Shown: positions 24,930-27,791 of the stretch, in pieces
Layout of the letters: every line of letters starts with the position of its first letter
Position numbering within the stretch: the first letter of the stretch is position 1
Origin: Bacteroidales bacterium
GTDB lineage: Bacteria > Bacteroidota > Bacteroidia > Bacteroidales > Muribaculaceae
NCBI GenBank assembly: GCA_029007645.1
Contig: JAQXIE010000018.1
Location: 1-64,000, forward strand
Length of the DNA: 64,000 bases
Direction: 5' to 3'
Notes under the pieces: generated by a model
Seen by the model: only the letters and a program-made list of their open reading frames with translations
Database searches by the model: none
Told to the model about the DNA's origin: nothing
Position numbers and translations under genes: made by a program

Positions 24930-26915
24930 ATGATTCATGATACGGTTGCCATATTTCTGATTGTACTGCTGATCATCCTGTTGGGTTCAGTAGTGTTCAG
25001 ACGCATGCGCATACCCCCGATCGTGGGCATGATCATCGCGGGCATAGCGGTGGGACCCTATGGGTTCGGCCTGCTGGAGCGCGATGCCAGTTTCCGGATT
25101 TTCGGCGACGTGGGCATTCTCTACATCATGTTCCAGGCCGCTGTGGAGATCGACATGTTCCATCTCAAGGCGCAATGGCGCAGCGGAGTGCTGTTCGGAC
25201 TGCTTAGTTTCACGCTGCCGATGCTGGCGGGCGTGTTCGGCACGCGCTATCTGTTAGGCGCCGGCTGGGACACTTCGATATTGGTGGCCACGATGTTCGC
25301 GGCGCACACGCTGCTGACCTATCCTGTGGTCAGCAAGTTCGGGCTGCAGAACACCCGGCCGGTGGTCGTGGCCGTCTGCGGCACAATCGTGTCGGTGATG
25401 CTGGCGCTGTTCGTGCTGGCAGGGGTGGTGCAGATCAGCGCCACCGGCGGCTATTCTCCGAAACAGCTGCTGACATTGCTGGCGCTGACCGCAATGTTCC
25501 TTGGTGCCGTGGGATATTTCTTCCCGATTATTACCAGGGTTTTCTTCCATAACACCACCGATCCGGTGGCCCAATACATTTTCATCCTGGCCGAAGTACT
25601 GGTAGCCGCCCTTGGTGCGAGGATGATAGGACTCGAAGGGATTCTCGGCGCGTTTTACGCCGGTCTGGTGCTCAACAACCTGATTCCCGGGCGCTCGCCG
25701 CTGATGAAAAACATTCGGTTTGTGGGCGACGCCGTATTCATCCCCTATTTTCTGATAGGAGTCGGGATGCTGATAAATGTCCGGGTGGTGGTCGAAGGCT
25801 GGGCGGTGATATGGAGCGCGATCATCATGACCCTGCTGGCGCTGACCAGCAAATGGCTGGCTGCATTCGCCACGCAGAAATTCCTGCGTATGTCGGGAGT
25901 GGACCGCGGGCTGATGTTCGGACTGAGCGGCGGCAAAGCGGCGGCGACCATCGCCGCTGTGATGATCGGCTACAAATACGGGTTGCTCAACGAGGACATG
26001 ATGAATGCCTCAGTAGTGATGATACTGTTCTGCTGTCTGGTCGCATCGGTGCAGACCGAGCGGCGCGCCAAGCAGCTGCGCATCATCAAGACCTCGCGCA
26101 ATCTTGACCGCGAGGAGCTGGAGCCCGTGGAATATGCCCGCCAACTCGTTGGCGTATGCAATCCGATGACGGCCGGGGAGCTGATGCGTCTGGCGCTGTT
26201 CATGCGCAAGCGCGACAACACGCGGGCGGCTACGGCACTGTTTGTACGCAGCAACGACGACAGCGACACGCTGCGCATGGGTCGCGAAGCCCTGGATGAA
26301 GCCACATCGATCGCCGAAGAAATGGATGTCGAGGCCGAAAATGTGGAGCGATTCGACCTCAACGCCGTACAGGGTATCTGCAATGTGGCTCACGAGAAGG
26401 GCGCCACGGAAATTCTGCTGGGTATGCACCGCCGCAATTCGGTGGTGGACTCGTTCTACGGGGCGATGACCGAGCATCTGATTCAGGACTGCACGCGGAT
26501 GGTGATGCTGTCGCGCAGCTTCAGTCCCGTGGGGATGATCACAAGGATCACGGTGGTAGTGCCTCAGAACGCCGAGTATGAGACAGGATTTCACATGTGG
26601 GTGACGCGCCTGGGCACATTGGCGGCAAATATCGAGGCCAAGATCACCTTCCTGAGTTATGCCACGACAGCGAGTCTTATCCAGGCCGCGGTCGAGGAAG
26701 ACAATATCCAGGCCGATATCCGCTACCGGACGGTGACGGAATGGGACGACTTCATCACGCTGACATCGGACATCGACGACGGCGATCTGCTGGTGATGAT
26801 CTCGGCGCGCCGCGGCTCGATCAGCCACAGCCCCGATCTGGAGCAAACCACGGCCTACATCTCGCGCCACTTCCAGCGCCACAACCTGCTGGTCATCTTC
26901 CCGAAGCAATGGTGA
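24930..26915 (+). CDS. cation:proton antiporter (CPA2/Kef-NhaS type) with C-terminal universal-stress-like domain
   Basis: About 12 hydrophobic segments, PPIVGMIIAGIAVGPYG, LGAFYAGLVLNN; soluble C-terminal region. Confidence 0.88.
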   Translation: MIHDTVAIFLIVLLIILLGSVVFRRMRIPPIVGMIIAGIAVGPYGFGLLERDASFRIFGDVGILYIMFQAAVEIDMFHLKAQWRSGVLFGLLSFTLPMLAGVFGTRYLLGAGWDTSILVATMFAAHTLLTYPVVSKFGLQNTRPVVVAVCGTIVSVMLALFVLAGVVQISATGGYSPKQLLTLLALTAMFLGAVGYFFPIITRVFFHNTTDPVAQYIFILAEVLVAALGARMIGLEGILGAFYAGLVLNNLIPGRSPLMKNIRFVGDAVFIPYFLIGVGMLINVRVVVEGWAVIWSAIIMTLLALTSKWLAAFATQKFLRMSGVDRGLMFGLSGGKAAATIAAVMIGYKYGLLNEDMMNASVVMILFCCLVASVQTERRAKQLRIIKTSRNLDREELEPVEYARQLVGVCNPMTAGELMRLALFMRKRDNTRAATALFVRSNDDSDTLRMGREALDEATSIAEEMDVEAENVERFDLNAVQGICNVAHEKGATEILLGMHRRNSVVDSFYGAMTEHLIQDCTRMVMLSRSFSPVGMITRITVVVPQNAEYETGFHMWVTRLGTLAANIEAKITFLSYATTASLIQAAVEEDNIQADIRYRTVTEWDDFITLTSDIDDGDLLVMISARRGSISHSPDLEQTTAYISRHFQRHNLLVIFPKQW

Positions 26916-27165
26916 TAGCAGAGGGGCTGGATAGCCTCGATAGCAGATAGCCCAGATAGCCCTAATAGCTTCAATAGCTTCAATAGCGGCAATAGCCCCA
27001 ATAGCCTCAATAGCTTCAATAGCGGCAAGCCGGACCCAGCTTCGCTATTGGGGCTATTGCTATCAAGGCTATTGAGGCTATCTGAGCTATCTGCTATCAA
27101 GGCTATCAAGGCTATTGAGGCTATCTGGGCTATTGCTATCCTATTGCTATTCTGGCTATTGCATT
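26914..27165. repeat. short-unit array RATAGCNNN (left arm) followed by inverted GCTATYNNN units (right arm), foldback array
   Basis: gatagcctc gatagcagatagccca gatagccct aatagcttc aatagcttc aatagcggc aatagcccc aatagcctc aatagcttc aatagcggc - short loop - gctattggg gctattgct ... ggctatctgggctattgctatc; first unit overlaps the TGA stop of the upstream gene. Confidence 0.92.
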
Positions 27166-27170
27166 TTTAT

Positions 27171-27200
27171 TTGTAAGTGTGGCGGGATTTCGGTATATTT
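27171..27200 (+). promoter_or_regulatory. Bacteroidota sigma-ABfr-type promoter of four-helix gene 1
   Basis: TTG (27171-27173) - 19 nt - TATATTTG (27193-27200). Confidence 0.6.
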
Positions 27201-27233
27201 GCCAATAGTATCAACTATTAACTCCAAAAGACT

Positions 27234-27791
27234 ATGGGACAAGGAGATGGCTTCTTGAAGGCGAAGGGATCTTACCGGAATTTGTTCTGCTATCAGAAGG
27301 CGGAGGCCATCTACGATTTGACTTACCGATTTCAGCGGCGTTTTCTGGAAAGAGGCGACCGCACCATCGACCAGATGGTTCAGGCTGCACGGTCGGGCAA
27401 GCAGAACATCGTCGAAGGCCGCGCGGCGGCCACGACATCGCGCGAGACCGAAATCAAACTCTACAATGTAGCGCGAGCCAGTCTGCAGGAGCTGTTGATC
27501 GACTACGAGGACTACCTGCGCACCCGAAATCTCCAGCTATGGCAAAATGGCCATCCACGTCTCGAGGGGATTCGGCGCACCTGCGCCGAGCATAACGATT
27601 CAGCCTACTTCTGTCAGCTCGAGCCCAAATGCAATGCCGAGGAACTCGCCAACCTGGCGATCACGCTGATCCATCAAACCGATGTGATGCTCCGCAAACT
27701 GATCGATTACGCCAAGGAGGACTTCCTGAAGGATGGCGGCGTCCGCGAACAGATGACCCGCGCACGCCTTGCGCGCCGTAACGGAAATTAG
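27234..27791 (+). CDS. four helix bundle protein (23S rRNA-intervening-sequence/S23, Avd-like family)
   Basis: DQMVQAARSGKQNIVEGRAAATTSRETEIKLYNVARASLQELLIDYEDYL is the family signature region. Confidence 0.85.
   Translation: MGQGDGFLKAKGSYRNLFCYQKAEAIYDLTYRFQRRFLERGDRTIDQMVQAARSGKQNIVEGRAAATTSRETEIKLYNVARASLQELLIDYEDYLRTRNLQLWQNGHPRLEGIRRTCAEHNDSAYFCQLEPKCNAEELANLAITLIHQTDVMLRKLIDYAKEDFLKDGGVREQMTRARLARRNGN

What the first reader, a model, noticed from the sequence alone, without database searches (positions are those of the whole stretch)
26914..27791. Foldback array of short RATAGCNNN units directly upstream of a four-helix-bundle gene
Seen: about 250 bp made of mostly 9-bp units. The left arm is GATAGC/AATAGC plus a variable triplet; the right arm is the reverse complement (GCTATT/GCTATC plus triplet), separated by a short non-repetitive loop (aagccggacccagcttc). 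The outermost arms match as gatagcagatagcccagatagcc versus ggctatctgggctattgctatc, so the region can form one long register-flexible hairpin. The array begins inside the antiporter stop codon (TGATAGC) and ends about 8 bp before a TTG-N19-TATATTTG promoter of a four-helix-bundle (S23/Avd-like) gene. No CRISPR spacers, transposase, reverse transcriptase or rRNA explain it. Inference: the array is a substrate or RNA partner of the adjacent protein, possibly a REP/RAYT-like arrangement with a four-helix protein in place of the transposase.
Basis: partly seen in the sequence, partly recalled or inferred. Interest (0 to 1): 0.9.

Follow-up and report, generated by a model that had tools for sequence, protein, structure and literature searches.

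The report
Four-helix protein with its own repeats
A small bacterial protein gene sits beside a fold-back array of 9-base repeats, and across many phyla genes of this protein family are bracketed by short repeat arrays whose sequence changes along with the protein, which points to a widespread, little-described class of mobile DNA and offers an origin for dispersed repeats that have been puzzling for decades.

Summary
The array is real and is not an isolated oddity. The neighbouring gene encodes an S23-type four-helix protein with a C-terminal '4helix_suffix' domain (TIGR04258). In 120 relatives, period-9 arrays are 50-100 times denser within 250 bp of such genes than beyond 2 kb; no other period from 5 to 15 behaves this way except 10, in a subset. 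The intended control, S23 genes without the suffix, turned out to carry period-7 arrays, usually on both sides and inverted (23 of 25), in Bacteroidota, Pseudomonadota, cyanobacteria, spirochaetes, Chloroflexota and Bacillota. Each gene has its own unit. Unit similarity tracks protein similarity (Mantel r 0.45, permutation maximum 0.09) although synonymous sites are saturated. Gene-less arrays occur elsewhere, and one unit type is enriched in genomes holding the matching gene class (Fisher p 8e-6). Orthologous sites are found filled, empty, or holding arrays alone; one Nostoc site shows a clean insertion with an 11-bp target duplication. Heptamers described as unexplained in Xanthomonas and variable heptamers in the Coxiella 23S rRNA insert fit the same pattern. 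Best reading: a RAYT/REP-like selfish element with an S23 protein in place of the transposase. Partnership is well supported; protein-driven mobility is inferred.

The parts
26914..27026 (+). left arm of the array: RATAGC plus triplet units (12 ATAGC copies), mostly 9-bp spacing; begins within the antiporter stop codon
27027..27043 (.). non-repetitive loop between the arms
27044..27165 (-). right arm: same unit inverted (14 GCTAT copies)
27169..27202 (+). promoter-like TTTG...TATATTTG upstream of the gene (pattern match only)
   Evidence: Bacteroidota promoter form from general knowledge
27234..27791 (+). S23-type four-helix-bundle protein with suffix domain, 185 aa
   Evidence: TIGR02436 29.4 bits, TIGR04258 73.7 bits; PF05635 29.9 bits, below its cut-off 33.8; AlphaFold2 pLDDT 92
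27636..27782 (+). 4helix_suffix domain (residues 135-183); the long helix of this domain holds most of the positions that covary with the array unit
55156..55280 (+). 10-bp-unit array (GATTAATCNN type) upstream of the second family member
55415..56170 (+). second S23-type/4helix_suffix gene, with a topoisomerase-I-type C4 zinc ribbon at its C-terminus
   Evidence: TIGR04258 55.4 bits; PF01396 39.5 bits
56151..56253 (+). 10-bp-unit array downstream of the second gene, overlapping its 3' end

Best explanation
The foldback array and the gene form one selfish element of a large, largely undescribed class, here called S23-array elements. An S23-type four-helix protein recognises the short repeated unit that brackets its own gene (7 or 8 bp for plain S23; 9 or 10 bp for the suffix subfamily; 8-11 bp in its zinc-ribbon branch). 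The arrays act as the element's ends and as the protein's binding platform; gene-less arrays are non-autonomous copies, as REP sequences are to RAYT transposases. Shown here: tight linkage, period by subfamily, unit-protein covariation, inverted bracketing in plain S23, presence or absence at orthologous loci, one clean insertion with an 11-bp duplication, dispersed orphan arrays. Inferred: direct binding, the substrate (hairpin or single-stranded DNA, or RNA), that the protein (solved relatives were crystallised with five chains) lines up along the array one subunit per unit, and that it helps host replication or repair copy the arrays elsewhere. No catalytic domain was recognised, so the joining chemistry is probably borrowed from the host.
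For: Linkage: 40 gene-centred regions, period-9 clusters 2.3/kb within 250 bp against 0.02-0.03/kb beyond 2 kb, 38 of 40 genes; 80 further loci from several phyla, 59 with period 9 and 12 with period 10 within 400 bp. Plain S23: best period 7 in 19 and 8 in 2 of 21 loci, 14 of 15 plasmid loci, 22 of 30 Pseudomonadota. Inverted: 23 of 25. Covariation: Mantel r 0.45, permutation maximum 0.09, n = 87; four-fold sites near saturation (0.30 against 0.26 expected) in pairs of 60-80% protein identity, 12-39% of which still share units. Trans: GATTAATC arrays in 13 of 150 genomes, 8 of them holding the zinc-ribbon gene class against 10 of 137 others, p 8e-6. Mobility: Nostoc filled/empty pair with TGGAGTTGGGT duplicated (second uninterrupted relative L431); accB-accC gap filled with S23 plus inverted GGGATTC arrays, empty, or array only in Xanthomonadaceae; no copy of the gene behind the orthologous antiporter in 24 relatives, two of which carry other arrays there. 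Array copy number differs between 97%-identical Planktothrix strains.
Against: No systematic target duplication in 61 two-sided loci; only one is confirmed by an empty site. Some genomes hold arrays without a detectable gene (G140, G059, G078; G278). About a quarter of suffix genes have no period-9 array at the threshold used, although some of these have period 10. Unit-protein covariation is partly expected from joint inheritance. In the suffix family the two flanks are not consistently inverted (8 inverted, 13 direct, 15 undecidable of 36). No binding or movement data exist.
Confidence: 0.7

Rival explanations
1. The arrays are regulatory binding sites, not transposon ends. The S23 protein binds its unit in DNA or in untranslated RNA (much as the TRAP ring binds spaced triplets), controls its own gene, and the orphan arrays mark a small regulon.
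For: Arrays often lie in short intergenic gaps and near gene ends; two solved S23 structures, 2gsc and 2rld, hold five chains each; covariation of unit and protein; MacGregor 2015 proposed a translational role for TAACTGA heptamers in Beggiatoaceae (PMC4679880).
Against: The whole cassette is present or absent at orthologous sites and lies between genes of unrelated operons (cas1/cas2, accB/accC, hsdS/hsdR); one insertion interrupts a gene with a target duplication; arrays lie on both sides, and upstream of the promoter in the window, so are not consistently in an untranslated region.
Confidence: 0.15
2. A repeat-RNA partner system like type III toxin-antitoxin (ToxIN): the array is transcribed and its RNA units hold the protein in check.
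For: Tandem repeats beside a small protein gene; strong RNA folding; several S23 genes sit among defence genes.
Against: Units of 7-10 nt against about 35 nt in ToxIN (from memory); no toxin fold or PADLOC family found for the window protein; arrays in both orientations and on both sides; dispersed orphan arrays.
Confidence: 0.05
3. The arrays are mere replication-slippage products that happen to lie in intergenic gaps; the gene is a bystander.
For: Array length changes quickly between close strains.
Against: Period fixed by protein subfamily (7/8 against 9/10), 50-100-fold local enrichment, unit shared between genes at saturating divergence.
Confidence: 0.03
4. The element moves only through another enzyme (a reverse transcriptase or transposase acting in trans), and the S23 protein is an accessory, as Avd is in diversity-generating retroelements.
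For: S23-type proteins resemble Avd in fold and pentamer form (from memory, not tested); no catalytic domain in the protein.
Against: No such enzyme is among the immediate neighbours in the window or consistently next to the genes elsewhere; whole genomes were not searched for one.
Confidence: 0.2

Closest known systems
RAYT/REP (TnpA-REP transposase with its repetitive extragenic palindromes)
   Same: A gene bracketed by inverted short repeats, each gene with its own cognate repeat, and gene-less copies of the repeat dispersed in the genome.
   Different: The protein is a four-helix S23 type without the Y1 transposase domain; repeats are tandem arrays of 7-10-bp units, not 20-40-bp palindromes.
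23S rRNA intervening sequences (IVS) coding for S23 protein
   Same: Same protein superfamily; gene held in a base-paired structure; described as a selfish element. The Coxiella IVS has GACAGAT heptamers in front of the S23 gene whose number varies by strain (PMC4990558), as the plain-S23 rule found here predicts.
   Different: The window element is not in rRNA, has 9-bp units and a suffix domain.
Unexplained heptamer arrays: TAACTGA in Beggiatoaceae, cyanobacteria and Bacteroidota (PMC4679880); GGGAATC in Xanthomonas and GGGGATT in Nostoc (PMC4692102)
   Same: Dispersed 7-bp tandem arrays; in Xanthomonadaceae the S23 gene in accB-accC is bracketed by GGGATTC/GGGAATC units, in Planktothrix by AATCCCC-type units.
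   Different: Those papers do not name a cognate protein; MacGregor suggested that a repeat-binding protein might be the mobile element.
MITEs and foldback elements (for example BrickBuilt of Porphyromonas, PMC4596501)
   Same: Gene-less inverted-repeat units in intergenic sites, such as L392 in the accB-accC gap.
   Different: MITEs derive from transposase genes and have fixed terminal repeats; here the ends are unit arrays.
Avd of diversity-generating retroelements
   Same: Pentameric four-helix-bundle protein of related fold (from memory).
   Different: No adjacent reverse transcriptase, template or variable repeat.

Membership tests
TIGR02436 / TIGR04258 protein family (four helix bundle with suffix) | Scores above the curated cut-offs of both models | tested here: met
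   29.4 bits (cut-off 24) and 73.7 bits (cut-off 40)
Pfam PF05635 23S_rRNA_IVP | Score above gathering threshold | tested here: not met
   29.9 bits against 33.8
RAYT/REP | Y1 (HUH) transposase domain in the protein | tested here: not met
   Only S23-type families found; all-helical model
RAYT/REP | Gene flanked by inverted cognate repeats | tested here: met
   Plain S23: 23 of 25 inverted; window gene: one foldback on one side
RAYT/REP | Cognate repeats dispersed elsewhere in the genome | tested here: met
   C2:345-386 for the window unit; GATTAATC arrays at many contigs
RAYT/REP | Repeat sequence covaries with the protein | tested here: met
   Mantel r 0.45, permutation maximum 0.09
23S rRNA IVS | Located inside a 23S rRNA gene | tested here: not met
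   No Rfam match in the window
23S rRNA IVS | Excision of the RNA by RNase III | not testable with these tools
   Needs RNA work
Insertion sequence / transposon | Target-site duplication of fixed length | tested here: inconclusive
   One clean 11-bp case; no general signal in 61 loci
Insertion sequence / transposon | Presence or absence at orthologous sites | tested here: met
Diversity-generating retroelement | Adjacent reverse transcriptase with template and variable repeats | tested here: not met
   Neighbours are an antiporter and a DUF5689 protein; whole genome not searched for RT
CRISPR array | Repeats of 20 or more nt with unique spacers | tested here: not met
   9-bp units, no spacers
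Type III toxin-antitoxin (ToxIN) | ToxN-type endoribonuclease | tested here: not met
   No such family; no PADLOC match for this protein

The most novel reading that the evidence does not exclude
S23-type four-helix proteins define a bacterial class of mobile elements, found across many phyla, that spread short tandem arrays without a transposase, recombinase or reverse transcriptase of their own: the oligomeric protein reads a 7-10-nt unit, its spacing set by the protein subfamily, and makes host replication or repair copy the array to new sites. Many dispersed heptamer and nonamer arrays of bacterial genomes, and the S23-coding inserts of 23S rRNA, would be products of this one process.
Probability: 0.35. 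Interest if true: 0.95.

Novelty: new variant of a known kind. Interest (0 to 1): 0.87.

Why it matters
Four-helix S23 proteins are common 'function unknown' genes in many bacterial genomes, and heptamer arrays in Xanthomonas, Nostoc, Beggiatoa and others have been reported for decades without a maker. The data tie the two together with a simple rule (plain S23: 7-8 bp; suffix S23: 9-10 bp; unit follows protein) that predicts which protein made which array, offers a common origin for S23-coding rRNA inserts, and can be tested at once with purified protein and a short DNA or RNA library. If the protein moves the arrays, it would be a mode of mobility with no known enzyme.

Tried and rejected
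CRISPR, rRNA or tRNA, and a known RNA family: nothing in the window. Defence-system models: no match for the window protein, one weak NucC match (E 0.03) for the second gene, not credible. Sequence search of solved structures with the window protein: only a chance Cas2 match. Foldseek against the PDB: no match with E below 0.001; the only related entry in the list is 2rld, an S23 protein (E 1.3, TM 0.59 by target). Use of plain S23 genes as a negative control failed in an informative way: they have period-7 arrays. A general target-site duplication was looked for and not found. A second nucleotide-level empty site at the Nostoc punctiforme pNPUN02 locus (L203 against L415-L417) was not clean enough to define ends. 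Downstream synteny of the window element is not conserved in relatives, so its exact ends could not be read. A phage origin is unlikely: one relative among 2.9 million viral contigs. Papers: none naming TIGR04258 or linking S23 genes to arrays in general; the library holds open-access PMC papers only, so prior work may exist elsewhere, and NCBI's own note on TIGR04258 could not be read. Presence of any suffix gene does not predict GATTAATC arrays (p 0.16); only the matching zinc-ribbon class does.

Full report
The observation. The fold is far more stable than shuffles (z -9.2). It begins in the stop codon of a Na+/H+ antiporter gene and ends before a promoter-like site of a 185-aa gene. That protein is an S23-type four-helix bundle (TIGR02436) with a C-terminal 'four helix bundle suffix' domain, TIGR04258. 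The AlphaFold2 model is confident (pLDDT 92, seven helices).

The same genome. Six TIGR04258 genes or remnants were found in this genome. Each has a short-unit array beside it, and each array has a different unit: TATGAGAAC, GTCCTTAAG, TCTTATAAG, TAGCTAAGA, the RATAGC unit, and for the second gene in the window a 10-bp unit GATTAATCNN on both sides. An array of the RATAGC unit without a gene lies at C2:345-386.

Is it general? In 86 of 150 family genomes the domain is present. In 40 gene-centred regions of up to 20 kb, clusters of period-9 self-similarity occur at 2.3/kb within 250 bp of the gene and at 0.02-0.03/kb beyond 2 kb; other periods from 5 to 15 show nothing of the kind. In 80 named loci from an independent collection, including Verrucomicrobiota, Planctomycetota, Acidobacteriota, Kiritimatiellota and Mariprofundaceae, 59 genes have a period-9 array within 400 bp and 12 a period-10 array (some may have both). 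A few loci are shared between the two sets. A tree of these proteins needs at least three changes of phylum group on well-supported branches, so the gene has crossed between phyla. Twenty genes of the zinc-ribbon branch show periods of 8 to 11, mostly 8 or 10.

The control that was not one. S23 genes without the suffix were meant as a negative control. All 21 have period 7 (19) or 8 (2) as the strongest periodicity, 20 of them at or above the threshold that only 7% of random 3-kb stretches reach for period 7. The arrays sit on both sides of the gene, and in 23 of 25 measurable cases one side is the inverse of the other. The same holds on plasmids of cyanobacteria, Bernardetia, Treponema, Chlorohelix and Monoglobus and in 22 of 30 Pseudomonadota loci. 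So the period is set by the protein subfamily.

Unit and protein go together. In 87 suffix loci, protein identity and array similarity are correlated (Mantel r 0.45; 2000 permutations reach at most 0.09; 0.24 against 0.08 for pairs under 65% identity). Joint inheritance alone would give some correlation, but at 60-80% protein identity the four-fold degenerate sites are already near random (0.30 against 0.26), while 12-39% of pairs still share units. Columns most associated with the unit, after allowing for overall identity, are 11 and 20 and a set in the suffix helix (145, 149, 152, 158, 161 in L055 numbering); columns 11, 152 and 158 pass a permutation threshold on the maximum over columns. 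This test does not fully remove ancestry and should be read as a lead.

Arrays in trans. The GATTAATCNN array is found in 13 of 150 family genomes, often at many contigs (G007, G102, G140), and its reversed control pattern in none. Eight of the 13 hold a zinc-ribbon suffix gene, against 10 of the other 137 (p 8e-6). Three of the 13 have no suffix gene at all, so arrays may outlive the gene. RATAGC arrays occur in six of the 150 genomes, all of which hold suffix genes, and outside G000 they stand alone.

Insertion. (a) The antiporter keeps its upstream neighbour in 22 of 24 genus relatives, but none has the S23 gene after it; in G558 a 10-bp GATTAATC array and in G574 a 7-bp array stands right behind the same stop codon. 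(b) In 30 Xanthomonadaceae, about half have between accB and accC an S23 gene bracketed by GGGATTC/GGGAATC units and their inverse; others have a gap of 20-30 bp or a slightly longer one; L392 has a foldback of GGGACCC heptamers and no gene. GGGAATC is the repeat reported about 180 times per genome in Xanthomonas (PMC4692102), and 2gsc is an S23 protein of that genus. (c) In Nostoc flagelliforme the S23 gene with TTCAAAA/TTTTGAA arrays interrupts a reading frame that is whole in two relatives; the target TGGAGTTGGGT is present twice, once on each side, and once in the empty relatives in slightly diverged form. (d) S23 cassettes lie between cas2 and cas1, hsdS and hsdR, and DISARM drmD and pglX. 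A general duplication was not found in 61 loci. (e) Array length changes by whole units between Planktothrix strains with nearly identical S23 genes.

Published pieces that fit. The Coxiella 23S rRNA insert, called a selfish element, has GACAGAT heptamers before its S23 gene, two or three by strain (PMC4990558). MacGregor (PMC4679880) found TAACTGA arrays scattered over distant phyla and suggested that a repeat-binding protein could be the mobile thing, without naming one.

How it probably works. Known from solved relatives: five S23 chains in the crystal entries. Inferred: subunits of the oligomer bind successive units, which would explain why the unit spacing is fixed by subfamily; the suffix domain lengthens the spacing from 7 to 9 and carries much of the specificity; inverted arrays fold back into hairpins when single-stranded in replication or transcription; the protein-bound hairpin is copied or joined elsewhere by host enzymes. 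Steps after binding are a proposal. A regulatory role of the arrays (autoregulation) could exist at the same time.

Limits. Most genomes are draft assemblies, in which contigs break at repeats; plain S23 loci were taken from the best-scoring matches, not at random; array thresholds miss short arrays; the literature held is open access only.

Noticed in passing
window 55415-56170: Second 4helix_suffix gene in the window, with a topoisomerase-I-type zinc ribbon (PF01396) and 10-bp-unit arrays on both sides; its unit also occurs without a gene at G000:C31:15224-15281 and G000:C18:66338-66375.
   Followed up: yes
G000:C2:345-386 (L003): Gene-less array of the RATAGC unit directly upstream of an adenylosuccinate-lyase-like gene (purB, named from the sequence).
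   Followed up: partly
L284, L385-L414: Xanthomonadaceae: S23 gene with GGGATTC arrays between accB and accC; gives a candidate maker for the GGGAATC repeats of Xanthomonas.
   Followed up: yes
L200, L204, L194: S23 cassettes sit inside defence operons (between cas2 and cas1; DISARM drmD and pglX; hsdS and hsdR), in line with their neighbours in the last two.
   Followed up: partly
L048, L057, L058: Arrays run into the 3' end of the gene, so the protein tail becomes a tripeptide repeat (for example SDQSDQSDLSD, YQSYQRDQSYQ), since 9 bp equals three codons.
   Followed up: no
L208 (Nostoc commune HK-02 plasmid5): The only plasmid S23 locus fetched without a heptamer array at the gene; it has two inverted 9-bp GC-rich arrays about 1.3 kb downstream.
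   Followed up: no
L202 compared with L382 (Nostoc plasmids): Downstream array of about 4 units in one plasmid and about 30 in the other, beside homologous S23 genes.
   Followed up: partly
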